From positions 1-64,000 of the forward strand of contig CAJODF010000001.1 of the NCBI GenBank assembly GCA_905233555.1: a DNA stretch of 64,000 bases, in the 5' to 3' direction. Numbering within the stretch: the first letter of the stretch is position 1; every line of letters begins with the position of its first letter. Both the position numbers and the translations under genes were made by a program. Shown here piece after piece: positions 27,699 to 58,800 of the stretch. The stretch comes from an uncultured Prevotella sp. (GTDB lineage: Bacteria > Bacteroidota > Bacteroidia > Bacteroidales > Bacteroidaceae). The notes beneath the pieces are model-generated. The model did no database searches and was not told the DNA's origin. It saw nothing but the letters and a program-made list of their open reading frames with translations.

Positions 27699-27734
27699 AC
27701 AAGATAATGTAAAGTAATTTGGCGAGTTTTTATA

Positions 27735-27758: not shown

Positions 27759-27831
27759 GTTAATTCGGTTAAATGATGTTAATAAATAGGGCTTTGTCGA
27801 TAAAAAATGCCGTTATATCCCAAAAAAGTCG

Positions 27832-29337: not shown

Positions 29338-29345
29338 GTGAGAGT

Positions 29346-30521: not shown

Positions 30522-30577
30522 CAAAAATAAACTTAGAGATAGACAAAATGAATCAATTAATTAAAGTATTTGTAAAT

Positions 30578-32950: not shown

Positions 32951-33010
32951 AACATGAATCAAATTCGAGAAAATAAATATATAGTATTAATCAATAAAAA
33001 ATTTACAATT

Positions 33011-37993: not shown

Positions 37994-38013
37994 ATGAATA
38001 ATGTTTGTGTGAG

Positions 38014-39252
38014 ATGAAAAGATGGGAACATACTATAGGAAGTAGGATGTCAGGCCTGATGAGGTCTGCCGGCATCCTGCTGCTGTCGGCTATGTCGGCA
38101 GTAGTCCTCCTGTCGTGTGGCGGCAGCGGTGACGAGCCGGGAGGTGATCCCACGCCCGTGCCCAATGGACCTATGCCCATCTTCTTCTCCGGCAGCCTGG
38201 CCGAAAGCCATAGCGAGAGCCATGCCCGTACCCGTGCCACGACGCAATACTTGAAACTGACGCATGAGACATTCTATGCATGGGCCTATAAGAACCCGAC
38301 ATCCGGCAGTGCCGAAACTGTGATGCAGGATTACACTGTCAACTGGCTGACAGGCTCCGAGGGCACCACCGCCAGCAACTCCAGCGGTTGGGAGTACGTA
38401 AACCAACAGCCTTCCGGAGGCGTGGAGCAGAGCATCAAGTATTGGGACTTCGATGCCGCAGACTACCGTTTCTTCGGTTATGCTGGCCCGAAGACATCGG
38501 ATGAGTACCCGAACTATTCATGTACGATAGGCTCGGATAATGTGGCGATTTCCTTCGGGGTAGATGTCTCTAAGGTGGTTTCCGGCAATCCGCTGAAAGA
38601 CCCCAGTCTGGCCCTAAAGGACGGTGAGACGCCACTTCCCATCTTCTCGAAACTCTGGTACAAGGCGAAGGCATCCCTGCCTGCTCAGAAGAACAATCCA
38701 GTCATTCTGGAGTTCCTCCAGCCTTACAGCAAGGTGCGCTTCATGTTCCGTCAGTCGGAGCCGGAGACCACGAGGTTCATCCTGTCGGAAATACACTTCA
38801 AACCGTCGAGTGGTGCAAAAATCTATACAAAAGGAACCTTTAAGGTGACCTATCCCACGACAGGTGAGGAAACCGCTGAGACGTGGACTATTGAGAATCC
38901 TGATGATGCGACGGCTTTGCCCGATCTGGACAAGTACTACTATGAGGTTGCATCCGGCGAAACAGATCCGGTCAAAATTGCTGGTGAGAAGATGTGGTAC
39001 GTCGTCCTGCCCGCAAAGGACCAGGGTACTTACACCCTCTCACTGAAGGTGAACGGCAAGGAAAAGAATGTCGTTCTGCCCGCCAAGTATATGATTTGGC
39101 TGCCGTGCTACGAATATACCTATATCTTTAAGATTACGGAGAACGGTGGTGTCGAGATTGCTGCCGTGCAGTCGGCCTTCACGCCGTGGGTCACCCACGA
39201 ATATAGTGATAGCGATGAGCATCCTAATATGTATGAGGTTTATAACTGGTGA
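38014..39252 (+). CDS. Fimbrillin-like lipoprotein 4 (minor pilin)
   Basis: The ATG at 38014 gives 412 residues with a long n-region and lipobox (SAMSAVVLLSC, Cys35). A TTG three codons upstream was not used. Arg74 in HARTRATTQY, 39 residues after the Cys, fits the same maturation rule as the other pilins. Shared blocks are SNSSGWEYVN, VEQSIKYWDFDAADYRFFGYAG, YSKVRFMFRQSEPETTRF and LPCYEYTYIFKITENGG. It lacks the C-terminal Ig-like extension of fimbrillins 1-3. It is probably a tip or adaptor subunit. The stop overlaps the next start (TGATG at 39250-39254). Confidence 0.8.
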   Translation: MKRWEHTIGSRMSGLMRSAGILLLSAMSAVVLLSCGGSGDEPGGDPTPVPNGPMPIFFSGSLAESHSESHARTRATTQYLKLTHETFYAWAYKNPTSGSAETVMQDYTVNWLTGSEGTTASNSSGWEYVNQQPSGGVEQSIKYWDFDAADYRFFGYAGPKTSDEYPNYSCTIGSDNVAISFGVDVSKVVSGNPLKDPSLALKDGETPLPIFSKLWYKAKASLPAQKNNPVILEFLQPYSKVRFMFRQSEPETTRFILSEIHFKPSSGAKIYTKGTFKVTYPTTGEETAETWTIENPDDATALPDLDKYYYEVASGETDPVKIAGEKMWYVVLPAKDQGTYTLSLKVNGKEKNVVLPAKYMIWLPCYEYTYIFKITENGGVEIAAVQSAFTPWVTHEYSDSDEHPNMYEVYNW

Positions 39253-40523
39253 TGAGAATAGTGAAAAGTTTTGACTATAGTACGATGAGATGGCTGCTGC
39301 GCCTGATGATGGTTGCAGCAGTGATGTGGGTGGTATCCTGTTCCGAAGATTCGGAGCGGGACGAGCATCGCGAGCCTGCTGTCGCCATCGAATTGATCCC
39401 CGGTTTCCCAGCCTATGGTGAGGAGTGGCCCGCCTCGGCAGCCGCCACCCGTGCCGATGATCCGGTAACTTGGAGTCCGGGAACGACGCCGGCCGGTTAC
39501 TATCTCTATAGCGATTCACGTATCAATGGCCTGTTTGTGAAGCAGAAAGACCTGACCAACAACTCCATCGGTATCTTCTTCACCAAGGATGACGGCATTC
39601 CTGAGGTGATGCAGGGCTATTTCTCCTGTCAGGACCCGTTAGGTGTGACACCGACAGACCAGGCCTGGCGTTCGAGTGTGGAAATCAAGACTATTGGCAC
39701 CTATCAACTCTACGGTTATATCCCGCTTGAGGAGGCCACAGCCACTATTTCGAAAAACCCAACCTATGCCGATGGTGCCGTACTGACTCTGAGGGGTCTC
39801 AAGGCTGTGACGACGTCTGATGTCTGTGTGGTAGTAGGTGCCAAGGAGGGCGTGAGCGCGACGCAGGTCGCATACCCGGGCATCAGAACCGGTCAATTTG
39901 ATTATGTGGCACAGAGCACGGATGCGAATAATTTCGTGTATCTGCTCTTCGACCATATCTACTCCGCCATGCGCTTCCGCTTTACCGTTGCTGAAAGGTA
40001 CGACGAAGTGCGTACCATCAAACTCCGCAAAGTGGTTATCAAGGGTACTGAGGATGGGTTAATGGCCAACTACAATGCGGTCGTTACCCTCAGTAAAAGG
40101 ACGAATGGCCAATCCCCCATCACAGACATCTCCTTTAATTCCGACGATTATACGACGCCTGCGACCTGGGAGGAACTTTATAGTTGGAACGAAAAACCGA
40201 TAGAGGAAAGCGGGAGCAATGAGGTGATACTGAAGTATGGTGAATTGACACATTTAATGGGTAGATTCATGCCCGGGTGGAGTACGCACTACACCTCTAA
40301 CTTCACACTCCAAAGCACCTACGATGTCTATGACAAGCAGGGCAACCTCGTCCGCAAGAACTGTGTTGCCGAAAATAAGATTAATCTCACCAGTCTCTTT
40401 AAGACTTCGGTTATAGAGAGAGGCCACATGTATTCGCTCACCTTGCTGGTGGAGCCCACCTACCTCTATATGCTCTCCGAGCCGGACTTGGACAATCCGA
40501 CGGTGAAGTTGAAAAAGGAATAA
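39252..40523 (+). CDS. Fimbrillin-like lipoprotein 5 (minor pilin)
   Basis: The ATG at 39252 overlaps the previous stop and gives 423 residues with a lipoprotein signal ending in VAAVMWVVSC (Cys30). Arg67 in AAATRADDPVTW, 37 residues after the Cys, is the expected cleavage site. It is the most divergent of the five, but it keeps the pilin pattern: YQLYGYIPLE, NFVYLLFDHIYSAMRFRF, EVRTIKLRKVVIKG and the late HMYSLTLLVEPTYLYML. This resembles Mfa1/Mfa-like and FimC/FimD-type accessory pilins. It stands directly before the two giant genes, 13 bases from the first, so it may couple them to the pilus. Confidence 0.75.
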   Translation: MRIVKSFDYSTMRWLLRLMMVAAVMWVVSCSEDSERDEHREPAVAIELIPGFPAYGEEWPASAAATRADDPVTWSPGTTPAGYYLYSDSRINGLFVKQKDLTNNSIGIFFTKDDGIPEVMQGYFSCQDPLGVTPTDQAWRSSVEIKTIGTYQLYGYIPLEEATATISKNPTYADGAVLTLRGLKAVTTSDVCVVVGAKEGVSATQVAYPGIRTGQFDYVAQSTDANNFVYLLFDHIYSAMRFRFTVAERYDEVRTIKLRKVVIKGTEDGLMANYNAVVTLSKRTNGQSPITDISFNSDDYTTPATWEELYSWNEKPIEESGSNEVILKYGELTHLMGRFMPGWSTHYTSNFTLQSTYDVYDKQGNLVRKNCVAENKINLTSLFKTSVIERGHMYSLTLLVEPTYLYMLSEPDLDNPTVKLKKE

Positions 40524-40536: not shown

Positions 40537-43500
40537 GTGAAGACGAAATATATCATAATAAGCGCATTGATGTTCCTGGCTGCTACGGTGGCACAGGCGC
40601 AGGTTGCTGAGGATAAACCGGTCATCAATATTCAGGGCAAGGTGTTTGGCGGTGCCCGTCAGGCTGATGTCGAGGGACATACCTTCGTCTCCATCGCTGC
40701 CGAGAACTTTGATGTTGTCATTGATGAAGTCTTTGGCGGCAATGATATCTCTGGATCGATAGGCTCTGGAACGTCTGTTCAAACTGCTCCACCAGCTGCT
40801 CCACCAGAAATGTCTGGAGCACCGGATATTAGTGACGACTGCAATGTCTATATCTCTACCAATAAGGAGGCAACGGGCAAGCACCTCTTCATCGGCCAAC
40901 TCTTCGGTGGCGGTAATGGCGACTATACATATACGAATGCAGAAGGTGTTGACCTTACAGACGGGACGGATAGTGAAGGTCATACCATTTATAAGGTCAT
41001 GGATGGTGACACCAAGGTTGCCACCAGCATAAAGAAATTCACTAAGCCCGAACTCAGCAAAGTCTATCTTTCGCTGAAAGGAGGCACCTTCGGCTATGTC
41101 TATGGTGGTGGTAATGCTGCTACGGTGGTGAATCAGACAGATATCTATATCAACAATAAAAGTGAAATCACCAAGAAAAAAGGTACCAAAGACAGCGAAA
41201 ACAACGATATAGGCTTTGAGTATCTGACTTCAACCGACATAACGAGGATGGGCATCACATCCGACTATAACGACACTTACCAGTTCTCACGTGTCTTTGG
41301 CGGTAACAACAAGGCCGCCATGGCCGCTCAGCCCACATGGCATCTCGTTGAAGGCAGTATTGAGAACCTCTATGGTGGTGGCAATGCAGGCGATATGACC
41401 CGTACCCAGGGTATCTCGTTGAATATTGACGGCGCAGATATGAGGGTCCATAATGTCTATGGCGGATGCCGTAAGGCCGATGTCCACCACACAGCCTCCG
41501 TGGGCATCTATAACGGTAATATTGACTATGTCTATGGCGGTAACGATATCTCGGGTACCGTCAGACAAGGCACGAGTGTCGTGATTAAGAGTACCATCAA
41601 CCATGATGTCTATGGCGGCAGCAATGGTTCTTATCTATACACAAACAGCGATGCAAGCAGCGACCTCTATTTCCAGATTCCAACGGGGATGAATGCTGCA
41701 GAGGCGCTGACAAATCACCGTCCGAATGTGCCGAGTACGTCCGTTTTGTTACAAGGTACGGCAGAGCATCCCGTGAGCATCGGCGGTGCCGTCTATTGCG
41801 GTGGTAACAGTGCGACGCTGAAGACGAACTCAGAATTTACCGGAACGCCTAGTGCGACGCTGACCCTTGGTTCCTATGTCAAGGCCTGTCAAGTCTTTAT
41901 GGGCTGTAACGGTGAGGATATGGTTAAACCGGAGGCACTCACTCACTTTAGTAGCGCTCTCGACCTGAAAACACCGGCTAATATGGCCAAATACATGGAG
42001 GGCGTGGAGATGCAGATAAAGCCTAGCGTTAACTTTGCCAATCCGTATAGTGCCGAGGGCGTTGTTGATAGAGCGTCCAATGCCCATATCGGGGAATTCT
42101 ACTGTGGCGGTAACGTGGGTAGTGTCTTCGTGAAGGGTAAGAATGAATTCCACTTTTCGAAGAATGTCTTTATTCATGAGAAATTGGTTGGCGGCTGTAA
42201 TAATGCATACGTGGCAGCGGTTAGTGAACGTAATGCAGAATATAAGGGTGGCATGATTGAAGGTAAGACTGTTGACGGAGCCATTGATCAGGCATCCAAA
42301 GCCTCTCCCAAGGTGCAGTTGAATCTTACGGGCTTGCGCCTGGAACCACGTAAGATGGTGTTCGACGAGAACACAAGAGCATGTAAGTACGAATATTCGT
42401 GGACAGAGGGTACTGGGGGGAGTGCCGTGACGCAAACCAGCGAATGGTTCTTGACCAACGAGGATAATGATCCTACTACTAAAGACAACCTGCTGAAATG
42501 GGGTAATGTCTATGGCGGCTGTTTCAACACGGGCTATGTGATGGGTGACGTGGTGATAAACATCTCCTCCAGGACCTCCGAACCGACAGACATCTTCAGA
42601 CAGTCTGGTACTAATAATAAAAACGATGCAGGTTGGAACACGGGTATCTGGGAATCGGTTCAGGGCCAGGACGTGTTCTGTAAGACGCTGACCATCTTCG
42701 GTGGCGGCTATGGTGAACATTCGGTTATTGAAGGTAATACCCAAGTAAATATTAATTCTGGAGGTGTTGCCTTCCAGGTGTTTGGCGGTGGCGAGAAAGG
42801 CCCTGTCAACGGTAATACAGAAATCAATCTCTACACAGGCGGAGAGTGCCGTGAGATCTATGGTGGCGGTTTTGAGGGTGATGTCAATGGACATACGACG
42901 GTCAACCTTATTGGTGGTAAGTTCTACGATGCCTTCGGAGGTGCTTGTAATGCCGATGTCCGTGACTATACGGAGGTCTATATAGGTCGCAGTAGGGCTG
43001 TTGACGGCACTGGCAGACCCTTGCTGACCGGTTACCCGGAGGGTGCCAACATCTATGGCGGCAACGACTTCGGTGGTGAGGTCAAAGGAATTGGAACGGG
43101 AACGGAAATGGAACCGGACACGGAAATTGGAAAACATAAGCAGTCGGCCTATGAATTCAACGCAACTACCAGACAAAAGGATGTTACCACCATCGAGACG
43201 AACGCATACGTGGAGTATTATCATGGCAAGGTAGATAGTATTGCCGGTGGTAACTATGGTAACTATGAATACGAGACATATTACAATAGGAAAAAAGGTA
43301 CCAATGGCGTAGATGACCCAGGAGGCGTCGCAGCACAACTACATGCAAAAGATCCTGATACTTATGGTGCTACTTTTGAGTTCAAAAAGCCTAAGGTTGG
43401 TTCATCTTTCCTGAATATCCAGACACCGCAAATCAGCGCTAACGACAGAGTGCTCTATTTCCTTGGTGGCAGTGAGGGCGCATCCGATGAGGCAGACAAC

Positions 43501-46500
43501 GATGAGATGCAGAGCAATAGTTATGTGCTTGTGGAAGCCCCGGGATTGAATATGCCGGAAGATCTTGCTAATAACTATCATGGCGCAAATGTCTATGGTG
43601 CCGGAGCCCATGCCGGACTGAAAGGCGGTACAACCCAGGTATGGTTGTTGAAGGGTCATGTGAAGAATGTTTTCGGTGCCAGCCTAAATGAGGGATGCAC
43701 CGAGAACGCCCATGTCTATGTGCCTGTCGGCTCCACCATCCATGCCAATGCCATCTTCGGCGGTGCTGACGGCAGCATTGTCAAGGAGCATTTCGAAAGC
43801 AATGCTGATTATAATGACCGTCTGAGTGAGTTTAATTCCAATATCAACAAGATTCCCTGCGATGCCACAAATGCTTTTGTGGAGTTTGCGAGCAATCAGG
43901 CCATCATCGACGATGCCATTTATGGCGGTAACAACTTCCAGCGCCGTACGGTGAATAGCACCGTCAACATCAGTGCTCCGGTGAAGAACAAGGACATTGT
44001 CGCGGAAGAGCTTACAGACCTGTGCGATGTCTATGGTGCCGGCTATGGTGGATTCACGTGGGCTACCTGTACTAAGGTCAATTTGCTCTCCGGTGCCCAG
44101 GTGCTGGACCTTTACGGCGGAGGCCGCGATGGTAAGGTCTTTGAGACGAGCAGTGAGTATCATCGCATGATGGTGAATCATACAGAAACGTTTTGGGATG
44201 GAAATACCGATCCGCGTCAATATGAAAAGTATGATGGAAAAAATCCTGTCCACTCTGAAACGGGTTGGGCAGCAGAAGGAAAATTTAACACCAACGTCGT
44301 TATCAATCAAGGTGCTATAGTCGTAGGTAATGCCTTTGCCGCAGGCAAGGGCGCAGATGCGAATGTCTCAGGCTCTTCGGGTCTGACCTTAAATGGCGGT
44401 ACAGTAATAAATAACATCTATGGCGGTGGCGAGGAGGCTCCCGTCCGTGACCGGTATAAAGTGGGACATGACCCGCAAACGATAGGTGATAATACTATCC
44501 CAGGGATCACGTGCTCGACAAACGTCAAGATATTAGGCGGTAGAGTCACTGAGGTCTATGGTGGTGGTCTCGACGGTGACGTGGGGCGTGGCGATGTGGC
44601 CAATAAGGATGTGTCAGGCTTTACCAATATCACTATCGGCAAACTCCATCAGGCCGATCCCACCTTCTACAACGGTGATCCTACGGTGGAGCGCAGTCTC
44701 TATGGCGGCGGCTATCGCGGCAAGGTCTATGGTACGGCTACTACCCAAATGAACAATGGCCACATCGGCTATAAGTATGTGGAGACAACCAATTCGGAAA
44801 CGAGTGAGGTGACAGGCAGTTACGTGGAGAACCTGGACTACGACAACGATACCCGTAAGTTGTTGAAACAGAATGGTAACCTTTTCGGTGCCGGCTATGG
44901 TGAGGGTGCCACTGTTGACTACACCGTGGTGAAGATGTATGACGGCGTGATCCGAAACAGCCTCTATGGTGGCGGTGAGATCTCGGCCGTGGGTCGCGGT
45001 GTGAAATACAACACCACAACGGGAAAATATGACATTTTGGATAACGATGAAGACGATTTCCATGCCGGTGGTACGCAAGTGACGATGTATGGCGGTCTGG
45101 TGCAGCATAATGTCTTTGGTGGTGGACGTGGTTATGCCATTGATGCCTATGGTAACACGACGTCGGGTGAGATTGGCTATTCCGACGGATATACCTTTGG
45201 TAGCACCGATGTGAAAATCCATGGCGGCACCATCGGTACCGTTAATGCGGTGGCAGAAGGCGACGGTAACGTCTTCGGCGGTGGTAACATCGGTCATGTC
45301 TATACAGGTAAAGGCCGGAAGGGTTTAGATGGCCCCAACGGTGAAGATAATTTATACTATCGTGATCCCGATGTTACCAGCACATCTGGTGATGATGGCT
45401 TTAATTTAAAGACAAAAGACTGCTGTGTTATCATTTCACCTTATTGTAAAGTCAAAAGTGCTGCTCAGGAATCCCTTGTTAAACTGTTGAAGGATATCAC
45501 AAAAACAGGAGAAGGAGAACCTACAACGTTGTACACTGCCGGTACAATTATAACTTCTGTACAATTGGCTGCACTGGAAGCCGACGCAGATGTATCTATC
45601 GGTACATCCGACTATGTTAATGTCACAATGATCAACGGTGAATACTTTGATACGGAAGGTCCGAATGCTTATGTCAGTACCGACAAACTTAATCTGCTTA
45701 CAGCTAACAGTGCCGATTGGGACAAACTTGAAAGAGAGGGTATCAAGATTGGCAATGCTGTGTTTGCCGGTGGTAACGTGTCGCGAGGCTCTGATAAGAT
45801 CTATGCCAACACCGTCACTGTACACGGCAATGCCGTTGCTTCGGTGGAAGATGTCTTTGCCAAGGACCTCATCACCCTCGGTGAGGATGGTATCGGCGGT
45901 CTCTATGGCGACGGTAACTTGACCTTGGTGGATGGTTATCGCGGTCTGAACATCACCAACTACGGCACAGACTACTACAACCTCAGTGACGCCATTGACT
46001 ACGACAAGTATCTGGAGATGACCGACCGTGAGCGTGCATACTTTGAACTGGAGTATGAGGCTAAAGAAGCGCATACTTATGAATACTGGGAGTGTAAGCA
46101 CACCCATACTTACCGAATGCCGGATGGTAATGGAGGTTATAAGGAGATATCATTCAAACACGGACAGAAACTGCCTGCATCTGAAACTACTCCTACTGTG
46201 GTAAGTGGGGAAGCAATCTCGTACGGTTCTCTGGACTATAACCGTGATGATGCTGTCAGTGTTAACGAATTGACTGAAGCAATGAAGGCGAAATCCTATT
46301 GGTGGAAACCTACGAAGCAATCTACTTCTTATACTGATAAGGAAACCATCAAGGAAGACAAATATAACCTGATGGATGATCACGAAAAGCAAAATTGGGA
46401 GCGCAAGGGCTTCTGCCGACTCTATGCCGGACGAATGATCAACACCATTCAGCGTGCTGACTTCTGCGGCGTCTTCGGCAGCCGCGTGGTGATGCGTGGC

Positions 46501-49500
46501 GCACAGGACCGTGTCACCGATGGTAAGTCTGCCGACTATACCGAATATACCATCAACCGTATTGGCGAGGTATCGCTGAACAAGAAAGTAGTGAATAATG
46601 ATCCGCACGGTAACTACTTCGGTATTTACAATGTGGTGAACTACCTCGGTGCCCTGACTAGCGATGTTCCCTTTGTCCCTAGCAGTTTCTATAGCCAACT
46701 TGCTGCTCATAATATGAGTGCGGCAGATGCTAAGCGTACCACAGATAATAGTCAGTCAGGCTATGAACCCAATGGCGACTCCTACTACGAATGGAAGCAG
46801 GACAATCTGAACACCCGTAAGCGTAACGATGGAACCTGTCATAACGACGTGGCCATGGCCTCTGGTGTGTGGTTGGAGATTGTGGAGGAACCGACTGATA
46901 ACAGTACGGAGAAGAAATACGGTCCCATTACAGGTGTGGTGGAACTGGCCTTGATCAATGTGGCTACCGGTGAGGGTGGTGGCTATGTCTATGCCAAGAA
47001 CGAACATGGTGTACTGAAACAAATAAAATCGTCTGACGAATTGTTCCTTTTGGACTCCAACTACGGTGCCGTTACCTATAAGCAGTTCAAATATGACACT
47101 CCTGAGAATGTAGTGACTGCCGAGGAGACAAACAGACAGCATCTGATCCCCGACAAAAATGGCAAGACCCCGGAACAAGATGGTTACATAACTACTTATG
47201 GCATATTAGTAACTGATGCGAATGGCAAAGAACCGGGAACGGAAGGCTATATACCTACAGCACAACTCGATGAGCATGGTGAACCAGTCACTTGGCACCC
47301 CATCACGCCGAAGATGGAGAGTTCGGGTAACTTTATCAATAGTGACAAGCGAATTGTCGATGATTGCTATCCGTTGAGCGGTGCCTATATGGGAGCCGAT
47401 CCTTCACCCGCCCACTACTGGTACATCCGAGGCGACTTCTATGTCTATGATCAGTATATCTCAGCCTATACGGGTTCGGCACAGGCCTATGCAGAGAAGA
47501 TTACCATCCCGCTGACCATCACAGCTGAAGCACAGGGACGGTTGACGCTGAACTCCGTGAACAAGAACCTCTATGCCTACTGGAATGGAGACTTGAGCGA
47601 TACGACTCATCCTGCCACGAATGCTGATGGAGAAACCATTGCCGACTCGTATAAGAGTAAAATCGACGACAAGGCGGTTGTCGTAGGTGGTCGCAGTTAC
47701 CATAAGAACGACCCCATCACCTACTGGGATTGGTCGCGACTGAGCGAGACGGAGCAGAATTTCTTCGTGGATGAGACCTATACCTGCACCACGACCATCA
47801 CCGACCATTATGCCAAGGGTGATGCCATCCTGCCTACTACCTATGAGACCCTTTCTACAAGCAACTACGTCGTAAGGGAGGAGATCAAGATCGTTGACAC
47901 GAGTCATGATGACCAGATAACGGTATATGCTGCTGGTAGTTACCTGCCGGCAGGCGTATATGCGACTTTGAGTGCCAAGGACAAGGAGAGGTGCATCACC
48001 GAGAAGGAATGTTTCAACATCAGTAATGCCATTTCCCATGACAATGGCTTCCTGCTGACGCTCGACTGGGATAATCCGGAAGAGTGGAACAAATATTATC
48101 GGGATCCCAGTGGAAACCGCGTAACGAGTAAGATCTATGATGGACTCACTGAAAGTCAACAATTGGATTATACACCGTGTCCGACCTTCCGCTGTGCGAC
48201 AACAGGTATTTATGGCCTACAAGAATGTGTTGTGGGCGATATCATCGATCAAACCACTTTCCTTACGAAGACAAAGTTGGATACGGATGTTAGTACTTAT
48301 ATGAGCAATCATCCTGAAGAAACTGATCCTACAAGTGGTAAAGTCTTCGGTGAATTCCAGAGAGCCTATGTGGCAATTGACGATTGCGTATTGTCTAATG
48401 GCCATCAGTACCTGAAGGAAGCCTGTATCTCAGCGGGTGAATGGGGAGGTCTCTCCGTTGAAGATAAATCCAAGTTTGGAGAGGCTTATATCTGTACGAG
48501 TAGTTACCTTGAGGACAAGACAAAGGAGTGCTTCCACGGTACGGTGATACCATATTCTGTCTATTCCACTTATCCTGCAAGCGAAAGGGATGAGTACTTC
48601 CAGCCGGCCTATATCTGTACCAGTGGTACTGTTGATGAGGAACACAAGAAGTGGTGGGGCGGAGAATTGTTCGTTGCTGGTACGAACAATGCTGCCGTCA
48701 AGTATTGTAACCTCCCGGCAAGTGAGCGTGCAGCATTCACCTATAACTACGATGCCTTCGACTTGCTCTCGGAGGATTTCAAGCCGGGCAACGAGAACTA
48801 TCCGTCAGATATTATCGCAGACGGTGTGATACCACTTTCTTGGTACGAGGGAGATCCTGACGATTCGCATCATGTCGTCAATGGGGAGAACCGCAGCGTT
48901 AAATCGGGAGAGGATCAGATTCCTTATGCCCATGAGCATCTCATCGATTATGATGCGACCTATACGGGTAGTACCATGACGGGTGATAATAAACTGAAAG
49001 AGAAAGTTTGGGTAACCCGTGCAGAAGAAACTACAAGCATAGAAACCGACCAATTGAAGTCTGGTGATATATTGAGCAATGAGCAATTCGGCAGTCTGAC
49101 GAATGAACAGTTCAAATATACGCCCATCATCGTAACGCCCGAGGATATTGCCAATGCAGATAAGGAGTATTACTACGTGGTGAAGAAGGAATTCGGCGTC
49201 GGTGAGACCTGGTATGCCCCAGGCAACCAGATCTCAGAGGCTACGTTCGAGAATCTGACGAGTACGCAGCAGGCCAATGTGGCTCAAGTGCCTAAGTCCA
49301 CTCTTGTTGCTAGCGTTGGCTCTGGCGGCGGACGAGTCTATTTCTGCACCAAGAAATATGAGCCGATTACTCCTGTGACAGACATCCTGGGTAACTATAC
49401 TTCGGGAGAAGTGTCTGTCGGTACGGTCATCACAGATGGAAATTATACTGGTCTTATCAACGAGCAGAAGAACTTCAGCATCGACGGTAAGATACCTAAC

Positions 49501-52500
49501 ACCACCTCGACATTCTATGTGGCACGTGAAGCGGACATCGACCAACTGCAGCAGGATAAGGTGGTGACGGTGATGTACTGGTATGAGTATATCGAGAGCG
49601 ACGAGGACGGCCGCAGTTACGAGACCATCCGTGAGCGTCACGTCATCAATGTGCATATCCACTTCGAGAGCGGTGTGCCGACCATCGGTACCCTCCTCCC
49701 GCCGTCAACCGTATTGCCCGGACAGAAGGTGGGTCTGAACCAGCCGACGGTGAGCGAAGGTGCCTTCGAGGTCATCGGTGGTGGATGGGAAATCTACACC
49801 AATGAGGTGGATGCCACCACTCACCAGAACGGTAGGGACTACGAGAGCGGAAAGACGCAGGTTTATTGGTATCAGGACGGCCACTATCTGGCCTACTATG
49901 CGAAGACCTCGAACAAGAATGTGGGACGCGTCTATTCCAACTCCGTTCCGTTGTCAGTGGCCAACTACCACCGTATGGAGGATGTGATGAACAGTACGCA
50001 CAAGGAGATGGTGGATGACGGAAACGGTGGACTCACTGAAACGGAGGTGCACGACTATATGTACGTCAACAAGGCTGCAGCGGATGTGAACAAACGCGAC
50101 TCCAAGATTTATATCGGCAGTAGCGATGAACTGGAAGCATTCAAGTCGCTCTATGACTTGTCGAAGCAAACGGCAAACACTGCTGGTTTTGAGAATATCC
50201 GAAACTGCCAGAATCTGGACTTCTATCTCGACAATGAGATTAAATATACCGGAGCAACACCTTGGACTTCCATCGGTAATAATCAGACGAATTGCTTCGA
50301 AGGTGACTTCCACGGCGACGGACATGCCATCACGGGCCTGCAGAACTCGCTCTTCAACTGGCTCTGCGGCGATGTCTATAACACTGGTGTGGCAGGCTCG
50401 TTCACTGGAGCCGGTATTGCAGAGAATGGTGACGGTTATGTGCAGAACTGCTGGATTAAGACTACCGGAACACCCACAACGGGTGCTGGGCATTATCCTG
50501 TCTTTGGCAATCCTGTGAGAGATGCCGCTGCTATTGCAGTACACGGAGTGGTCCAGGTGGAGAACTGCTACTATCCGGAGAGCAATGATTACTACGTGAC
50601 TTATCCGGACGGCTACAGCCGAGGCAAGGCTATCCAGAAGCCCGACGCTGCTTTCATCAATGGTGAGGTGGCCTACAACCTGAACAGTTTCTATCTGGCC
50701 CAGCGCTATTCGGACAATAGTGGAAAGGGAACAGCAGGCAACGCCTACTGGAAGCTTGAGGATGCCGGCGTGGATGGCAAGACACCTACATCCGTCAAGT
50801 ATCCGGCAGAAAACCCAGAAGACATCAATAGGTATGTGGAGAGTCGCTATGATAATGTGGACTTCCTCTATGCCGATGGTATAGTACCCGATGTGGGTGC
50901 CGTGAACATCCGCTACAATGCCACCAATGGCAAGTATTATCCTATCTATCCGGACGACTATATCTTCTTCGGACAGAACTTGACCTATGGACTCGTGACG
51001 GGTGGCGGCGCACACGATGAGCACCCGACGGCTGTCCTAAAGTATAAGGCTACCGAGGAAAACAAGAACAGTAACCATCTGCTGATTCCTGGTAAAACGG
51101 GTACTCGCGTCTATCGCGCTCCGGGTTACTATCGCAGTTCAGATATGGAACAGGTGTTCTTCAACCCGGATGCAGCCTTCAAGGATAAATATACCCCCAG
51201 GGCTGATGGTATCTTCGGATCGTCTGCCCAGACAATTGACATCCACAACCGCCTGACGGCTATCGACTTCACGGGCTATCATGATAGAGGCGCTTGGTCT
51301 GATGGCACGTCGCAGGACAACTACTTCAGGCATGTGCTCGATTACAACGGTTTGAGCAGTTTCACTACCAGTGGCGTGACCCGCAACCTGCTGGTCTATG
51401 CCAATAACGTGGGCGGTGCAGACGCGACTACCATGCAGGTGTTGCAAAATGCTTTGCAGCAGTATGAGCCAGTCTATAGCGAATCTTATTCTAATGACAA
51501 GTACAAGAAGGTGATTAGTAAGATTGACAACAATGATGTGAAGGGCCATCTGGTGGCGCAGGTAGAGGAGTGGACACAGGCTAATCCCTACAAGAGCAGC
51601 AGTGATCACTTCCTGGTGGATAAGCAGGACTTCAATGCACCGATCCCATACAAATTCAATGACGACAAGCGGATGTGGTATCAGCGCATGCCGGATAATT
51701 ACGTGGGTGAGTTGAAGAACTCGGATGGTACCTATAACCGTCAAGCAGGTTGGGAAGGTATCAGCATTCCATTCAAGGCCGAACTCGTCACCACAAACGA
51801 CAAGGGTGAGATTACCCACTTCTACAGCGGCAGCGAGGAGAGTAAGAACGATACTCATACAAAGATCGGCCACGAGTACTGGCTGCGTCATTACACAGAC
51901 CTGTCGGCGGAAGCCGATGCTAATGGTGTCCGTACTGCCACCATGCGCTATCCCGATGCTATCACGGATGGCCCTGAAAAGGAGGTGACTAACACCTTCC
52001 TCTGGGACTACTATTACAACGAGACGGTTTCACCACACCATGAGGATCAGAACAACGACACCTATCAGACGTATTACAACAGTACGCGCACCTATAGTAA
52101 ATACCCGCGTCTGACCAACGGTAGGCCGTATATCATCGGCTTCCCGGGTGAACGGTATTACGAGTTCGACCTGAGCGGCAAATTCCAGGCCGAGACGACT
52201 GCCGATCCGGATCCTGCCAAACTCGAAGCACAGACCATCAGTTTCGTTTCGGCCCCAGGCATAACCATCGATGTGAGCGACAATGAGAAGGCAGGTGAGT
52301 CAGAGGTAATTACGGAAGAGGGTAAGAAAATCACCTACACCTTCAAGCCGAGTTATCTGAACGAGGAATTTGAGGTTGGTAAGGCTGTCTATACCCTCAA
52401 TAGCCAGGGCAGCAGTTACGACAAGGTGCCAGAAACGGGTGAAGACAAGACTAAGGTTGCTGCCTTCCGTCCGTACTTCGAGGTAACGTCTGCTACGGCT

Positions 52501-52809
52501 GCCCGTCCCGTCACCCGCAGCATCGTCTTCAGCAACGATAACTCGCAGTTGAAGGGTGTCGAGGAGAAGGGTGATTCGAACAGCGAGGATCCGGGCCGTC
52601 TGAGCATCTATGCCAAGAAGCATAAGATCATAGTCGAGTCGGCCTTGACCCGCGATGTCGATATCCGTATCGTCAACGCAGCGGGTATCACCATCACCAC
52701 CTTCAATATCGAACCGGGCGAGACCGTCGAGACCCGCATCAACAGCGAGGGCGTCTATATCGTCCAGTCCGCCGACGGCCGCTATACCAAGAAACTCGCC
52801 GTGAGATAA
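40537..52809 (+). CDS. Giant (4090-residue) Gly-triplet repeat surface protein with T9SS tail
   Basis: A GTG start is followed by a signal peptide (MKTKYIIISALMFLAATVAQAQ). Residues 30-1800 hold about 37 repeats around VYGGGN, VFGGGE or IYGGGF followed by xGxV, one per 45-50 residues, each linked to a short strand such as TTVNLIGG; a long beta-helix is likely. Residues 1800-2400 are mixed. Residues about 2400-2980 hold a second repeat type of about 40 residues (AYICT...G..I...Y..L...E...F). Residues 3190-3310 resemble GLUG-type repeats (NCFEGDFHGDGHAITGLQN). The last 75 residues (RLSIYAKKHKIIVES ... GVYIVQSADGRYTKKLAVR) look like a T9SS type A sorting domain. It is the likely surface adhesin of the pilus locus. 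I recognise no described family for the repeats. Its frame continues in phase into the next gene after stop codons. Confidence 0.9.
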   Translation: MKTKYIIISALMFLAATVAQAQVAEDKPVINIQGKVFGGARQADVEGHTFVSIAAENFDVVIDEVFGGNDISGSIGSGTSVQTAPPAAPPEMSGAPDISDDCNVYISTNKEATGKHLFIGQLFGGGNGDYTYTNAEGVDLTDGTDSEGHTIYKVMDGDTKVATSIKKFTKPELSKVYLSLKGGTFGYVYGGGNAATVVNQTDIYINNKSEITKKKGTKDSENNDIGFEYLTSTDITRMGITSDYNDTYQFSRVFGGNNKAAMAAQPTWHLVEGSIENLYGGGNAGDMTRTQGISLNIDGADMRVHNVYGGCRKADVHHTASVGIYNGNIDYVYGGNDISGTVRQGTSVVIKSTINHDVYGGSNGSYLYTNSDASSDLYFQIPTGMNAAEALTNHRPNVPSTSVLLQGTAEHPVSIGGAVYCGGNSATLKTNSEFTGTPSATLTLGSYVKACQVFMGCNGEDMVKPEALTHFSSALDLKTPANMAKYMEGVEMQIKPSVNFANPYSAEGVVDRASNAHIGEFYCGGNVGSVFVKGKNEFHFSKNVFIHEKLVGGCNNAYVAAVSERNAEYKGGMIEGKTVDGAIDQASKASPKVQLNLTGLRLEPRKMVFDENTRACKYEYSWTEGTGGSAVTQTSEWFLTNEDNDPTTKDNLLKWGNVYGGCFNTGYVMGDVVINISSRTSEPTDIFRQSGTNNKNDAGWNTGIWESVQGQDVFCKTLTIFGGGYGEHSVIEGNTQVNINSGGVAFQVFGGGEKGPVNGNTEINLYTGGECREIYGGGFEGDVNGHTTVNLIGGKFYDAFGGACNADVRDYTEVYIGRSRAVDGTGRPLLTGYPEGANIYGGNDFGGEVKGIGTGTEMEPDTEIGKHKQSAYEFNATTRQKDVTTIETNAYVEYYHGKVDSIAGGNYGNYEYETYYNRKKGTNGVDDPGGVAAQLHAKDPDTYGATFEFKKPKVGSSFLNIQTPQISANDRVLYFLGGSEGASDEADNDEMQSNSYVLVEAPGLNMPEDLANNYHGANVYGAGAHAGLKGGTTQVWLLKGHVKNVFGASLNEGCTENAHVYVPVGSTIHANAIFGGADGSIVKEHFESNADYNDRLSEFNSNINKIPCDATNAFVEFASNQAIIDDAIYGGNNFQRRTVNSTVNISAPVKNKDIVAEELTDLCDVYGAGYGGFTWATCTKVNLLSGAQVLDLYGGGRDGKVFETSSEYHRMMVNHTETFWDGNTDPRQYEKYDGKNPVHSETGWAAEGKFNTNVVINQGAIVVGNAFAAGKGADANVSGSSGLTLNGGTVINNIYGGGEEAPVRDRYKVGHDPQTIGDNTIPGITCSTNVKILGGRVTEVYGGGLDGDVGRGDVANKDVSGFTNITIGKLHQADPTFYNGDPTVERSLYGGGYRGKVYGTATTQMNNGHIGYKYVETTNSETSEVTGSYVENLDYDNDTRKLLKQNGNLFGAGYGEGATVDYTVVKMYDGVIRNSLYGGGEISAVGRGVKYNTTTGKYDILDNDEDDFHAGGTQVTMYGGLVQHNVFGGGRGYAIDAYGNTTSGEIGYSDGYTFGSTDVKIHGGTIGTVNAVAEGDGNVFGGGNIGHVYTGKGRKGLDGPNGEDNLYYRDPDVTSTSGDDGFNLKTKDCCVIISPYCKVKSAAQESLVKLLKDITKTGEGEPTTLYTAGTIITSVQLAALEADADVSIGTSDYVNVTMINGEYFDTEGPNAYVSTDKLNLLTANSADWDKLEREGIKIGNAVFAGGNVSRGSDKIYANTVTVHGNAVASVEDVFAKDLITLGEDGIGGLYGDGNLTLVDGYRGLNITNYGTDYYNLSDAIDYDKYLEMTDRERAYFELEYEAKEAHTYEYWECKHTHTYRMPDGNGGYKEISFKHGQKLPASETTPTVVSGEAISYGSLDYNRDDAVSVNELTEAMKAKSYWWKPTKQSTSYTDKETIKEDKYNLMDDHEKQNWERKGFCRLYAGRMINTIQRADFCGVFGSRVVMRGAQDRVTDGKSADYTEYTINRIGEVSLNKKVVNNDPHGNYFGIYNVVNYLGALTSDVPFVPSSFYSQLAAHNMSAADAKRTTDNSQSGYEPNGDSYYEWKQDNLNTRKRNDGTCHNDVAMASGVWLEIVEEPTDNSTEKKYGPITGVVELALINVATGEGGGYVYAKNEHGVLKQIKSSDELFLLDSNYGAVTYKQFKYDTPENVVTAEETNRQHLIPDKNGKTPEQDGYITTYGILVTDANGKEPGTEGYIPTAQLDEHGEPVTWHPITPKMESSGNFINSDKRIVDDCYPLSGAYMGADPSPAHYWYIRGDFYVYDQYISAYTGSAQAYAEKITIPLTITAEAQGRLTLNSVNKNLYAYWNGDLSDTTHPATNADGETIADSYKSKIDDKAVVVGGRSYHKNDPITYWDWSRLSETEQNFFVDETYTCTTTITDHYAKGDAILPTTYETLSTSNYVVREEIKIVDTSHDDQITVYAAGSYLPAGVYATLSAKDKERCITEKECFNISNAISHDNGFLLTLDWDNPEEWNKYYRDPSGNRVTSKIYDGLTESQQLDYTPCPTFRCATTGIYGLQECVVGDIIDQTTFLTKTKLDTDVSTYMSNHPEETDPTSGKVFGEFQRAYVAIDDCVLSNGHQYLKEACISAGEWGGLSVEDKSKFGEAYICTSSYLEDKTKECFHGTVIPYSVYSTYPASERDEYFQPAYICTSGTVDEEHKKWWGGELFVAGTNNAAVKYCNLPASERAAFTYNYDAFDLLSEDFKPGNENYPSDIIADGVIPLSWYEGDPDDSHHVVNGENRSVKSGEDQIPYAHEHLIDYDATYTGSTMTGDNKLKEKVWVTRAEETTSIETDQLKSGDILSNEQFGSLTNEQFKYTPIIVTPEDIANADKEYYYVVKKEFGVGETWYAPGNQISEATFENLTSTQQANVAQVPKSTLVASVGSGGGRVYFCTKKYEPITPVTDILGNYTSGEVSVGTVITDGNYTGLINEQKNFSIDGKIPNTTSTFYVAREADIDQLQQDKVVTVMYWYEYIESDEDGRSYETIRERHVINVHIHFESGVPTIGTLLPPSTVLPGQKVGLNQPTVSEGAFEVIGGGWEIYTNEVDATTHQNGRDYESGKTQVYWYQDGHYLAYYAKTSNKNVGRVYSNSVPLSVANYHRMEDVMNSTHKEMVDDGNGGLTETEVHDYMYVNKAAADVNKRDSKIYIGSSDELEAFKSLYDLSKQTANTAGFENIRNCQNLDFYLDNEIKYTGATPWTSIGNNQTNCFEGDFHGDGHAITGLQNSLFNWLCGDVYNTGVAGSFTGAGIAENGDGYVQNCWIKTTGTPTTGAGHYPVFGNPVRDAAAIAVHGVVQVENCYYPESNDYYVTYPDGYSRGKAIQKPDAAFINGEVAYNLNSFYLAQRYSDNSGKGTAGNAYWKLEDAGVDGKTPTSVKYPAENPEDINRYVESRYDNVDFLYADGIVPDVGAVNIRYNATNGKYYPIYPDDYIFFGQNLTYGLVTGGGAHDEHPTAVLKYKATEENKNSNHLLIPGKTGTRVYRAPGYYRSSDMEQVFFNPDAAFKDKYTPRADGIFGSSAQTIDIHNRLTAIDFTGYHDRGAWSDGTSQDNYFRHVLDYNGLSSFTTSGVTRNLLVYANNVGGADATTMQVLQNALQQYEPVYSESYSNDKYKKVISKIDNNDVKGHLVAQVEEWTQANPYKSSSDHFLVDKQDFNAPIPYKFNDDKRMWYQRMPDNYVGELKNSDGTYNRQAGWEGISIPFKAELVTTNDKGEITHFYSGSEESKNDTHTKIGHEYWLRHYTDLSAEADANGVRTATMRYPDAITDGPEKEVTNTFLWDYYYNETVSPHHEDQNNDTYQTYYNSTRTYSKYPRLTNGRPYIIGFPGERYYEFDLSGKFQAETTADPDPAKLEAQTISFVSAPGITIDVSDNEKAGESEVITEEGKKITYTFKPSYLNEEFEVGKAVYTLNSQGSSYDKVPETGEDKTKVAAFRPYFEVTSATAARPVTRSIVFSNDNSQLKGVEEKGDSNSEDPGRLSIYAKKHKIIVESALTRDVDIRIVNAAGITITTFNIEPGETVETRINSEGVYIVQSADGRYTKKLAVR

Positions 52810-52833: not shown

Positions 52834-55800
52834 ATGAAAAGTAGATATATGACACAAGATATGAAGAAGGATACGATATTACATACCGAAAAAGGAACAT
52901 ATGTTCATCGGCTCATTAACATATGTTCATCGGCTCACGAACATATGTTCATCGGCTCACGAACATATGTTCATAACCAATCCAAGCAGATAGTCCGCCC
53001 GGGGCGGACTGGGAGTCCCCTTGAAGCGGACTGGGAGTCCGCTTGGGGCGGACTGCGAAACAGCCTCACACTCCTACGCAGTCTGCTGCTTCTCGTAATC
53101 CTCACCCTCGGCCCCACCACCGCCTGGGGACAGACGGGAACGAACCATTCGGGTATTTTTTATTTTGCAAACGGCGGTAGCGGAAAATCTGGTGATCCCG
53201 CGATAACAGGAGGCACAAGTTCTGATAATTATTTCTATCTTGTTCCGGCAGATAACCCTCAACAAGGCAATAAACGCGATGCATGGTACTCAAGCGATTA
53301 TAGCGCGGCTGATGGTGATCGCGAAAAGCCTTACATAACAACCTATAAGACTAAAAAGGATGCTGCTGAAATCCCCTCAGGTGTCACTGAACGCCCGCAC
53401 AACTCTGTTTGGATTGTGAAATTTGCCAGCACTGACTCTGGAACAGACTATTACTATCTCATTCATGCCGCCACAGGCAAATATGTGGTGTATGAGCCGC
53501 CTTATTCTAATAATTGGAATCGTAAGTCGGTGCACCTGCTGACAACAGACAGTCCTGGAGAGAATGCCAAATTTGAAATTACTACCAATCAAATTACCAT
53601 CAATTCTATCAATTATGACTGTTACAACTTCCGACCTAAGAGTAGAACTTCTGGAAATAGATATTTAAATGCAGCAAACGCAAACACAAATTATTACTAT
53701 TCTTCTGAAAATAATTCCGATGGTGCTGCTGATTATTTTCGAGGTCTTGTTGGCCTTTGGTCAGCTGTTGGCGGTGGCTCTGACTGGAAACCTGAGGCAA
53801 CCTTACTTGACGCTCCTACCATCAGCGCTGTGGATGCGAATAACAAAGTAACTATTACCGATGCTAATAGCCTGCCTTCAGGTTACGAGATACGCTACAC
53901 CACCGACGGCTCGACGGAACCGACGGCATCCACTGGCGAGGTTTATAGCGGGCCAATCTCCATAACGGCCTCCGTCACCATCAAGGCTGTGGTGGTACGC
54001 TACGGCATGGTGCTCACAGAGGTGGCCTCTGAAGCACGCGAGCCTGTACCCTGTGCCACACCTGTTATCAGTTTCGATTATACCACTTCGGAGGTTTCTA
54101 TTACTTGTGCCACTGATGGCAGCACCATAAAATTTAGTACTGATGGCGGTGAGCCAACTACAGATTATGACGGTCCGTTCTCTATCTCCGGCCCCACTAC
54201 GGTGAAAGCAATTGCCACCCGTGCGACTTTTGCCCCCTCCGCTGTGGCCGAGTTAGCCATCTCCCAAGTTGCCACACCGACAATACAGAATAATGGTAGT
54301 AATGCCATATCTATAACAACGACCACTTCAGATGCAACCATCTACTACACCACTGACGGTAGCACTCCAACGACCTCGAGCACCGAATACACCGATCCTC
54401 TCACGGAAAATGTCAGCAATGTGACCATCAAGGCCATCGCTGTTAAGGAGAACATGATCACTTCTGCTGTGGGCAGCGGCAAGGTGAAACTTCAATGCGC
54501 CACTCCTGTCATTACAAGAGACGGCATGACATTTACCCTTTCTTGCAGTTTTCCTACAGGCGCCAACCTATATTATAAATTGAATGGCGGATCTGAAGTT
54601 GCTTATGATGGAACACCTGTTTCCTTCATGGCCCAACAATTGCCTATAACAGTAACAGCTGTGGCCAGACACAGCAACTATACGGAGTCAGAGACCGCCT
54701 CCTTTGAACTTATAAACGGTTCAGGAACGTCTGATGACCCATACTTGATTTACAGTGCCACAGACCTTGCTACCTTTGTAGCGAATGTAAATAACGGAAC
54801 TACTGCTTCAAAATGCTACAAACTGGAGATAGATGTGTCAGGCAGCGGTATCGATGCCATTACCACTGACTTCACAGGCACTTTCGATGGTGGTTTGCAT
54901 ACCATCAGTAACCTTGGACATGCCCTGTTCAACACCGTCGATGGTGGTGTGGTAAAGAATGTCATACTTGATAATGTCAAGATAACTAGTGGTACCAATG
55001 TCGGTGCCATTTGCAATGAAGCCACTGGTGCAAGTCGCATCTATAACTGTGGTATATTGGCAACAAGCAGTACCATGGAAAAAGATGAGGACGGCTATGA
55101 CCATATCTCTTCTTGTAGTAGTTCTATTAGCGGTAGCGGTTACGTAGGCGGTATAGTGGGATTGCTTGATGGTAGTTCGCGCGTTATCAACTGTTTTAGT
55201 TACGCCAATGTTTCCGGAGGTAGTTATGTTGGCGGCATTGTGGGTTATAATAACGTGGCATCTACTAATCCTGCTACAGAGCTCAAGACCATGGTGATGA
55301 ACTGTATGTTTTATGGTGAGGTCAGTGGATCTTCGATAGCACCAATATACAATGGTAATATTATCACCAATATAGATAACAATAAAGGTGTTGGCAACTA
55401 CAATTATTTCCGTCTCGAAGCTTCGTATGTACAGCCAACGGGCATCACCTATAACTGTGCCCTTGGTGCTGAAGACCGTTATCTACAGCGTTTCGAGTTC
55501 TTCCGCAACCTGCTTAACAGTCACAGAGAACTGGCTGGTTGGTGGGCTACTGGCACCTATAGCAGTAGCGAGATGATGAAATGGGTGTTGGAACCCTCGC
55601 AGTTGGGCACTTCCACGCCTTATCCCATCCTCAAGGTTCCAGGCAAATATCTGTCGGTGGTGAACATCGATGCGGAGAACGCTCCCCTTGCCTTAGAACG
55701 CAACAAAGGAGGCAAATTAGGAACGCTGTCAGTAACCATTAGAGGTACTGGAGGTGGTGCTGTGTACAGCGCACCAGACGGAGCCTCTATTTCAACCGGC

Positions 55801-58800
55801 AGTCTTACTCTCAACATCACCGATAAAGATCCAGACCACTTCAACTTCAACTATTACAAGGTTCAATTGCCTTATTATAACGACGTAGGTACTGGCAACT
55901 ACACTGGCAATCGCGTAGTGACAGGATGGAAGATTGTCGGGATAACTGGAGGTACGCCTGGCGAATTTAAAAAAGAAGATACTGACAAGGGCTATAATTT
56001 TGCCGACCGTAACTGTACCAACAAGGATTTGTATAGCGTAAGTGGTCGCGTCTTTAATCAGGGTGCCTATTGGGACGTACCCGAAGGCGTCACTGACATC
56101 ACCATCGAGCCTTATTGGGCCAAATGCGTCTATCTAGCCGACCAAAATGCCGACAAGGTATATAATACGGAAATGACAACCGGATACGATGTACCCTACG
56201 TCGGTGGCGGACAGAAATACACCAACGGCAACAGCTATTCCATTGCAGGAGAAAACCAAGTGGTTTTCACCGCTATAGGCGATGCTATCGCAAGTTCGGG
56301 AACAGGAACGGCACTTTTTCAGGGAGTGAATAATTTTGCGAATCACACCGTTTATGACTATGCCGTGGTGCTTGTGGGCAATTATCATCATTATTATAAC
56401 CAGAATATAGATAAAAGCAAGCCTTACACGGTTACCTCTATCGACCTTGATGGCGACAACGAGCCCGACTACTCCTATATCCTGCGCTACAATGGTCGTT
56501 GCGAGACCCACCCTGTGAGGGCCGACTTCATCAATATTCCCGGCCTCGGTATGGCTCAGAAATCCACAGGTGGCACGGGTTCGTATAACTTCGGTATCAT
56601 GATTCCCACAGGATGGTTTGAGAGTACCAATACCTCGCTCTTCCGGTTCACCCAGTTCGAGTATGAGCACTCTAGCAGAAGCGCAACCGATGCCATCATC
56701 GTGCAGGGCGGTGTCATTGAGCAATGGGTGAGTTACAACCAAAAAGGTAGATCAAACAATATACCTTACATCCATGTAGGAGGTAACGTGTGGTTCAAGG
56801 AATTCCACACGGGCTGTCACCAAGATAAGAATATAACAACCGGATTCCAACCAACTAAGCACTCTCCTATATCGGTTACTGGTGGCGATTTCGATGAGTT
56901 CTACCTCACGGGACTTTATGTAGCCAATGTCGGTCTTAACAATTACGCAGACAACGCCGAGTGCTACATCAATGGTGGTCGCTTCGGCACCGTCTGCGGT
57001 GCTGCTATGGAGGGCATTGGCAAGGCTAATGGCGCCGACAACACAGGCAACATCACCTGGCTCATCCAAAATGCTGACATCCACGAGTTCTACGCCGGCG
57101 GCCTCAATGCCGCCAAACCGGTGACGGGCAACCTCTCCACCACTATCGTCGACAGCCACGTGGACATCTTCTGCGGCGGTCCCAAGTTCGGTGACATGAG
57201 TGCAAACAAAACCGTCGTCACCAACGCTACCGGCTGCACCTTCGGTACCTTCTTCGGTGCAGGCTACGGTGGTAACTCCTACAGCCGCGACGCACCAAGA
57301 AACCACAACAACATAGTGAATTTCCCCCACAACGATGGTGAAGGCGCCGGTAACCACGCTTCTTGGAATGCATGGTTGGCGGATAAATACAAGAAGAACT
57401 ATGACGCCGCTAAAGGTGGTATATCCACCCAGTTCGACTATCAGTTCTTGCCCATGTCGAACAACACTAATAACGTGGCACGAATCTTTGTCGATTACGT
57501 AGCCTTCTCGTTGGCAACCACACACGATGTCACTTCTTCTTTGGAAGATTGCACCATTACAGGTAATTTCTATGGTGGGGGTAGTCTGGGAAAGGTTGAA
57601 GGAGATGTCACTTCAACGCTCACCAACTGCACGGTAAACGGTAGTGTGTTTGGTGCAGGCTACTCGGCATCTCTGCCCACTGTGGAGGTGATGGGTGATG
57701 GTTTCCAGACAGAACCTTATTACTATACAGACCTCGGTACTTATCGTCAGGGAGTCTTTCCTGCTACAACTACATACCATTGGGAACAAGCGACTGCTAC
57801 AGAATTCAGTAGTAAGCAGGTGGACAATGAAGCACATATCCTCTATACTACTGCAGACCTTACGGCTTTGGGAACTGTTGCGGGTACAGCCACCCTAACT
57901 ATTGATGGCACGACGACCGTTGTTGGGGAAAGTGTCTATGGTGGTGGAGAAGAATCTTCTGTGAATGGTAATACCGTGGTTGCTGTAAATGACGGTACTA
58001 TTGGTGTGATTCCTGCTGGTCAAACGGGTGGTGCCACGTATGGCAACGTCTATGGCGGCGGAAAAGGAAAATATAAAGAAATAAAAGATGTAAATGGAGT
58101 TGAAACAGAAGTCGAACTTGCAGGCGATAAAGCCGTTGTATTAGGCCTCGTTAAGGGTAACACCAATGTCACTATCAATGGTGGCTCCATCATGCATAAT
58201 GTATATGGTGGCGGTGCCTATGGATCTGTAGGAACCTACACCTACGATACTTCTGGAAATATCTCTGCATATACTTCAGGTGGCGCTGCTAATGTCACCA
58301 TCAAAGGCGGTACCATAGGTACCACTGGTAAGGACAACGGTATGGTGTTTGGTTCGTCGCGTGGTGATATAGATGCTCTAGGTGCAATCCATGACCGTCT
58401 GGCGTGGGTATATAATACTAACGTTATTATTGGCACTTCGGCAACGGGGACTTATGGTGAAGAAGGCTATGTCGCAGAATCTGGCCCCACCATCAAGGGT
58501 TCTGTCTATGGTAGTGGTGAGAATGGTCATACTTATACAGATGCCAATGTGACCGTCCATGGCGGTATTATCGGCATACCTTCAGGTGACAATGAAGTTG
58601 TGCAGGGTGTAACTTATGCGGCCTATAATTATCCGTCACGTGGCAATGTTTATGGTGGCGGCTGCGGTACGGATAAGTATTATTCATCTTCATCCTTAAT
58701 CACAGGAACTCATACTGCCAATGATGGTATGGGTGACATGTATAACCCGTTGGCAGGTATCGTGTTAGGTACTGCTACCGTCCTCATCGACGGTGGCCAA

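What the first reader, a model, noticed from the sequence alone, without database searches (positions are those of the whole stretch)
40537..52809. 4090-residue secreted protein with about 37 Tyr/Phe-Gly-Gly-Gly repeats
Seen: a signal peptide, about 37 [VIL][YF]GGG-x2-[GA]-x-[VI] repeats in the first 1800 residues, and a T9SS-like tail. Known: Mfa5 of Porphyromonas is a T9SS-secreted tip protein of the Mfa fimbria. Inference: this is a giant pilus-linked or surface adhesin with a long beta-helix. I know no named family for the repeat, which differs from RTX (GGxGxD), although Gly-rich turns are common to both.
Basis: partly seen in the sequence, partly recalled or inferred. Interest (0 to 1): 0.78.

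Follow-up and report, generated by a model that had tools for sequence, protein, structure and literature searches.

The report
Giant pilus-operon-linked secreted surface protein pair
This gene encodes one of a conserved pair of enormous repeat proteins, made next to a bacterial pilus operon in Prevotella-type gut bacteria of ruminants, and its tail marks it for export to the cell surface, so it is most likely the base of a very long adhesive fibre of a kind no family database yet describes.

Summary
The ORF (40537-52809, 4090 aa) has a signal peptide, YGGG-type repeats far above chance, and a type A T9SS tail (26.4 bits, cut-off 23, when scanned alone). The count of 37 is too high: 8 strict matches, 13 [VIL][YF]GGG, 29 relaxed. 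G1 and G2 form a conserved pair at the end of a type V (FimA/Mfa-like) pilus operon. 244 places in GTDB species genomes encode G1 relatives; all record titles naming an animal point to ruminants or horse. The repeat matches nothing in Pfam, NCBIfam or the PDB. SprA is present in 40 of 41 genomes with strong G1. Proposed mechanism: a T9SS-exported, cell-anchored solenoid fibre made with the pilus, acting as adhesin. More novel reading: mature G1 starts about 7 residues before its first YGGG and G2-type chains stop about 20 after their last, together one repeat unit, so chains may stack head to tail; two single-chain relatives fit that order.

The parts
40537..52809 (+). G1: 4090-aa giant secreted protein; YGGG repeat region aa 37-1600, conserved middle block aa ~1945-2350, M26/GLUG-like stretch aa ~3200-3330, T9SS tail
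40537..40599 (+). signal peptide of G1 (cleavage expected after AQA, residue 21)
   Evidence: sequence; in 48 of 64 relatives the expected mature Q lies exactly 7 residues before the first VYGGG
40642..45350 (+). YGGG repeat region of G1, shortest period 25-28 residues with loop insertions
52624..52806 (+). T9SS type A C-terminal sorting domain of G1
   Evidence: TIGR04183 26.4 bits (cut-off 23); 45 of 64 members of the alignment match
52834..64000 (+). G2: second giant, 5327 aa in all, continues to contig position 68817; N-terminal CHB_HEX_C_1/Fn3_assoc and M26-N-like domains, then YGGG repeats; no T9SS tail. The listed start may lie too far upstream
39249..40523 (+). 424-aa protein directly upstream of G1, homologous in 73 of 76 related loci; lipoprotein/fimbrillin-like in relatives
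38005..39252 (+). 415-aa protein of the pilus operon; the gene at the same place in G155 matches FimA (PF06321, over cut-off)
35765..37993 (+). 742-aa lipoprotein-like pilus operon gene
32954..35251 (+). 765-aa lipoprotein-like protein, pilus operon
30548..32950 (+). 800-aa lipoprotein-like protein, pilus operon
29187..30521 (+). DUF5119 protein (E 2.8e-5, just under cut-off), anchor type; true start probably downstream of 29187 because the ORF overlaps its neighbour
   Evidence: G155 counterpart matches Mfa2 PF08842 at 3.4e-4, just under cut-off
27859..29337 (+). DUF3575 protein, first gene of the pilus operon

Best explanation
G1 is the cell-anchored base of a giant adhesive fibre that is produced together with a type V (FimA/Mfa-like) pilus. 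It is exported by Sec, crosses the outer membrane through the type IX secretion system by means of its C-terminal sorting domain and is retained at the surface. Its first 1600 residues form a long solenoid of 25-28 residue coils with loops, pointing outward; the C-terminal half is made of further beta-rich domains. G2, the second giant encoded directly downstream, extends this fibre and carries variable N-terminal domains for binding. Shown here: the repeat, the tail, the T9SS genes, operon linkage, conservation of the pair, horizontal exchange. Inferred: solenoid fold, surface location, G1-G2 association, adhesion (to plant fibre, other microbes or host).
For: T9SS tail over cut-off, SprA 2621 bits and PorV in the same genome; SprA in 40 of 41 genomes with a strong G1 match against 155 of 210 others (not corrected for kinship). 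Pilus genes upstream in the window and in relatives: DUF3575, Mfa2-type anchor, FimA over cut-off. Same upstream neighbour in 73 of 76 loci; a G2-type giant downstream in the operons read in full; the pair with pilus genes also in two other families of the order. G1 length constant, 3685-4403 aa in 64 relatives; G2 variable, 1684-5352 aa. Whole operon and G2 exchanged across families: G2 80% protein identity over 1883 aa and 82.7% DNA identity over 5282 bp between genomes whose RpoB are 76% identical and whose G1 are 37% identical, a pattern expected of variable surface adhesins. M26/GLUG-type match to a solved Bacteroides protein, 3n6z, E 5e-4. Mfa5, the only fimbrial protein found to depend on T9SS, is encoded last in the mfa1 operon (PMC7835359).
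Against: No structure prediction was possible. No known adhesin domain in G1. G2 has no sorting tail, so how it would leave the cell is unexplained. One genome (G010) with G1 gave no SprA match, though it has PorV. No expression or localisation data.
Confidence: 0.6

Rival explanations
1. G1 and G2 are independent proteins that merely share a repeat and an operon; G1 is a T9SS adhesin that replaces or decorates the pilus tip (as Mfa5 does), G2 is a separate secreted or periplasmic protein.
For: G1 has a tail and G2 has none; G2 exchanges horizontally without G1; other genes often lie between G1 and G2.
Against: The pair is conserved over three families; chain ends are cut at the same phase of the repeat; single-chain forms exist.
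Confidence: 0.3
2. The proteins are a passive coat or spacer (for example against phages or protozoa), not an adhesin.
For: Very large size, variable length, horizontal exchange; no adhesin domain found in G1.
Against: G2 has CHB_HEX_C_1/Fn3-associated and M26-N-like modules of the kind found in extracellular carbohydrate-active and surface proteins; encoded with pili, which are attachment organelles.
Confidence: 0.15
3. A contact-dependent killing 'stick' that delivers a toxin, like CdiA.
For: Giant repeat protein with a possible beta-helix.
Against: The C-terminus is a T9SS-type tail conserved in relatives instead of a variable toxin; no toxin domain; no immunity-type gene at a constant place.
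Confidence: 0.03

Closest known systems
Mfa5 of Porphyromonas gingivalis (accessory tip protein of a type V pilus)
   Same: encoded at the end of a type V pilus operon, much larger than the pilins, Sec signal plus T9SS tail (PMC7835359)
   Different: Mfa5 is 1228 aa with vWF and Ig-like domains; G1 is 4090 aa, has no vWA match, has YGGG repeats and is followed by a second giant
SprB/RemA-type T9SS giant adhesins of Flavobacterium (from own knowledge)
   Same: giant, repetitive, T9SS-exported surface protein
   Different: no SprB-repeat match in Pfam; no pilus operon; different repeat
RTX / LapA-type giant adhesins
   Same: Gly-rich repeats in a giant exported protein
   Different: GGxGxD absent from G1, once in G2; T9SS tail instead of a type I signal
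M26 N-terminal/GLUG-type proteins (PDB 3n6z)
   Same: profile of G1 aa 2960-4090 matches 3n6z at 5e-4 over about 130 positions; G2 matches Peptidase_M26_N
   Different: only a short stretch; the YGGG repeat itself matches neither

Membership tests
T9SS type A cargo | C-terminal sorting domain | tested here: met
   TIGR04183 26.4 bits over cut-off 23; Pfam PF18962 under its cut-off, 17.3 against 27
T9SS type A cargo | N-terminal Sec signal peptide | tested here: met
   by inspection, conserved in relatives; no dedicated predictor was available
T9SS type A cargo | T9SS machinery in the genome | tested here: met
   SprA, PorV
T9SS type A cargo | loss from the surface in a T9SS mutant | not testable with these tools
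   needs an experiment
Type V pilus operon component | linked FimA/Mfa-type pilin and anchor genes | tested here: met
   DUF3575 and DUF5119 (the latter just under cut-off) in the window; FimA PF06321 over cut-off and Mfa2 just under it in a syntenic operon
Type V pilus operon component | physical presence in the pilus | not testable with these tools
   needs purification or microscopy
Mfa5 family | vWF (vWA) domain with MIDAS | tested here: not met
   no Pfam match in G1 at E up to 1
RTX adhesins | GGxGxDxUx nonapeptide arrays | tested here: not met
   0 in G1, 1 in G2
right-handed beta-helix / beta-solenoid | solenoid fold | tested here: inconclusive
any described repeat family | match of the YGGG region to a curated family or solved chain | tested here: not met
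   Pfam, NCBIfam, PDB negative for the YGGG region of G1 and G2

The most novel reading that the evidence does not exclude
A split solenoid: the giants are standard modules cut at the same phase of one repeat unit, so that the open C-terminal coil of G2 stacks on the open N-terminal coil of G1, and a fibre of 9000 or more residues is assembled non-covalently from 'cap' (G2), optional 'middle' (open at both ends) and 'base' (G1 with T9SS tail) proteins. Only the base carries the sorting tail, so the others would be held, and perhaps carried across the outer membrane, through it.
Probability: 0.25. Interest if true: 0.85.

Novelty: new variant of a known kind. Interest (0 to 1): 0.62.

Why it matters
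Rumen Prevotella are among the most abundant bacteria in livestock and how they attach is poorly known. A conserved pair of giant proteins, made with a pilus operon, exported by T9SS and traded horizontally, would be a major surface structure of these bacteria with no name in the databases. If the standard termini mean head-to-tail stacking, it would be a modular way of building a very long surface fibre, and it would raise a concrete question: can T9SS carry a partner protein that has no sorting tail. Cultured strains (Prevotella lacticifex, Prevotella sp. tf2-5) carry the locus, so both points can be tested.

Tried and rejected
RTX: rejected. Plasmid-borne: no match to the conserved block in 72,556 plasmids. 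Phage: one match, an unverified 17-kb 'Bacteriophage sp.' record from human faeces that encodes a G1-like giant with a T9SS-type tail; read as a mislabelled bacterial contig. Invertible promoter upstream of the operon: only a weak short inverted repeat at 27723-27767. Bacteroides-type promoter consensus: no match upstream of the operon. Ricin-type lectin near the N-terminus of G2: E 0.46, not significant. tRNA or Rfam elements: none in the window. Papers on this repeat or on giant Prevotella proteins: none found. One seed sequence of repeat alignment A2 carries a one-letter typing slip (E for N); it only seeded a profile. One search was a wrong-frame translation and is not used.

Full report
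What is there. The ORF 40537-52809 is intact, 4090 aa, starts GTG and has a signal peptide. The shortest spacing between motifs peaks at 25-28 residues over 13 G1 relatives and their G2 neighbours; longer spacings come from loop insertions. G1 has no Pfam match at E up to 1, its only NCBIfam match is the T9SS tail, and the repeat slice has no PDB sequence match. The tail alone is over the NCBIfam cut-off, and 45 of 64 members of the tail alignment match it.

The neighbour. Directly downstream begins a second giant, G2, which runs out of the window and ends at contig position 68817 (5327 aa, 74 relaxed motifs). Its N-terminal part has CHB_HEX_C_1/Fn3_assoc modules and an M26-N-like stretch. It has no sorting tail. 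Upstream lie a DUF3575 protein, a DUF5119 anchor-type protein and five further genes, mostly lipoprotein-like. At the same place in relatives lie genes that match FimA over its cut-off and Mfa2 just under it. This is a type V pilus operon with the two giants at its end.

Relatives. In a sample of 251 genomes of the family, 45 match the C-terminal 2290 aa of G1, 41 of them strongly. In GTDB species genomes 244 places encode a relative of the conserved middle block. Among the 80 best, 25 record titles name an animal and all 25 are ruminants; one further title is 'Candidatus Colenecus caballi', a horse-gut name; two are named strains, Prevotella lacticifex and Prevotella sp. tf2-5. Sampling of ruminant MAGs is heavy, so this is an association, not a proof of restriction. 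No match in 394 other genomes drawn over the phylum; 5 of 246 other genomes drawn over the order have the repeat. Of these, three (two families) show the G1-G2 pair with pilus genes, one is cut by a contig end and one is an orphan tailed giant. G1 is 3685-4403 aa in 64 complete relatives; G2 is 1684-5352 aa. The gene upstream of G1 is homologous in 73 of 76 loci where it can be seen; the exceptions are broken or cut ORFs.

T9SS. SprA and PorV are in the genome. Of 41 genomes with a strong G1 match 40 have SprA, against 155 of 210 without (p 3e-4 by Fisher's test, not corrected for kinship). The exception, G010, has PorV.

Exchange. G749, of another family, carries the whole operon; its anchor, pilin-type and giant genes are mostly 55-70% identical to the second operon of G235, G1 at 70% over 3966 aa, whereas other G1 pairs are typically 35-50% identical. 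G848 shares 80% of G2 over 1883 aa (DNA 82.7% over 5282 bp) with G235 while their G1 are 37% and their RpoB 76% identical. The operon and G2 alone are therefore passed horizontally. G235 carries two such operons in tandem.

Termini. In 48 of 64 G1 the expected mature N-terminus (Q after A or G) lies exactly 7 residues before the first VYGGG; in nearly all others it lies 6 to 16 before. The window's own G1 starts with a longer lead and lacks the first canonical unit. Complete G2-type chains, including shorter split forms that end at other places of the family, stop mostly 19-26 residues after their last VYGGG, directly after the strand-like G-x-T-x-V-x-I; the outliers are longer tails, contig ends and probable frameshifts. 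20 plus 7 is 27, the natural unit. In L132 a chain that ends in this way is followed by one that begins with a signal peptide and QVRVRGNVYGGG. So chains are cut at one phase of the repeat. In G238 one 6296-aa protein, directly behind a homologue of the usual upstream gene, has an N-terminal GLUG-like region, a repeat stretch whose best matches are G2-type, then the G1 blocks and the tail; a human faecal contig encodes a relative (44.5% over 4552 aa). The order is G2-like then G1, opposite to the gene order, as stacking would predict. Reservations: repeat stretches resemble one another generally, the N-terminal region of G238 has no BLAST match to G2, and part of the G1 repeat region is missing there. 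Natural coil boundaries could also explain the common phase without any stacking.

Verdict. A member of a conserved but undescribed pair of giant, pilus-operon-linked proteins. T9SS cargo status of G1 is well supported; solenoid fold and adhesion are inference; head-to-tail stacking is a testable hypothesis.

Noticed in passing
between G1 and G2 in L073, L100, L106, L111, L112, L114, L116, L129 and G235: A 406-537 aa protein with a PEHLHFL-type motif like REP-associated tyrosine transposases (only a weak Y1_Tnp match, E 0.19) sits at the G1-G2 junction in many genomes; elsewhere the junction holds ATPase-like, nuclease-like, four-helix-type and other proteins, so it looks like an insertion hotspot.
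   Followed up: partly
52895-52974, 53004-53055, 35488-35563: Three tandem arrays of 22-bp units (the first holds the palindrome GAACATATGTTC) near the start of G2 and inside the pilus operon; 22 is not a multiple of 3, so copy number changes could alter the frame or the true start of G2.
   Followed up: partly
L086, L089, L092, L094, L102, L118, L134, L139 and G155 (second ORF after the pilus genes' giant): Extra proteins directly downstream of G1 that end in WYxLDGRRLxxxPTxKGIYIxNGKKVVIK, a tail shared by otherwise different proteins; possibly another sorting signal.
   Followed up: no
L177 (G838:C1), ORF 8403-18782: An orphan 3459-aa giant with 11 YGG motifs and a T9SS-type tail, outside any pilus operon, in another family.
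   Followed up: partly
L188 (MT835817.1): A record labelled Bacteriophage sp. from human faeces encodes a G1-like giant of over 4135 aa with a T9SS-type tail; probably a mislabelled bacterial contig.
   Followed up: partly
L082: A MAG titled Lachnospiraceae holds a G1 relative; probably a binning error.
   Followed up: no
G000:C47:19749-23441: rpoB of the window's own assembly is read in three pieces, so single-base assembly errors may be present in this genome.
   Followed up: no
window 40537-52809, aa ~1840-1960 and ~2360-3000: A second, weaker repeat by eye, about 45-50 residues, of the form YxC[TS]...G..I....Y..L......F.
   Followed up: no
window 2857-27698: A starch utilisation locus (SusC/D/E/F-like, GH13, GH77, GH97, pullulanase) directly precedes the pilus operon.
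   Followed up: no
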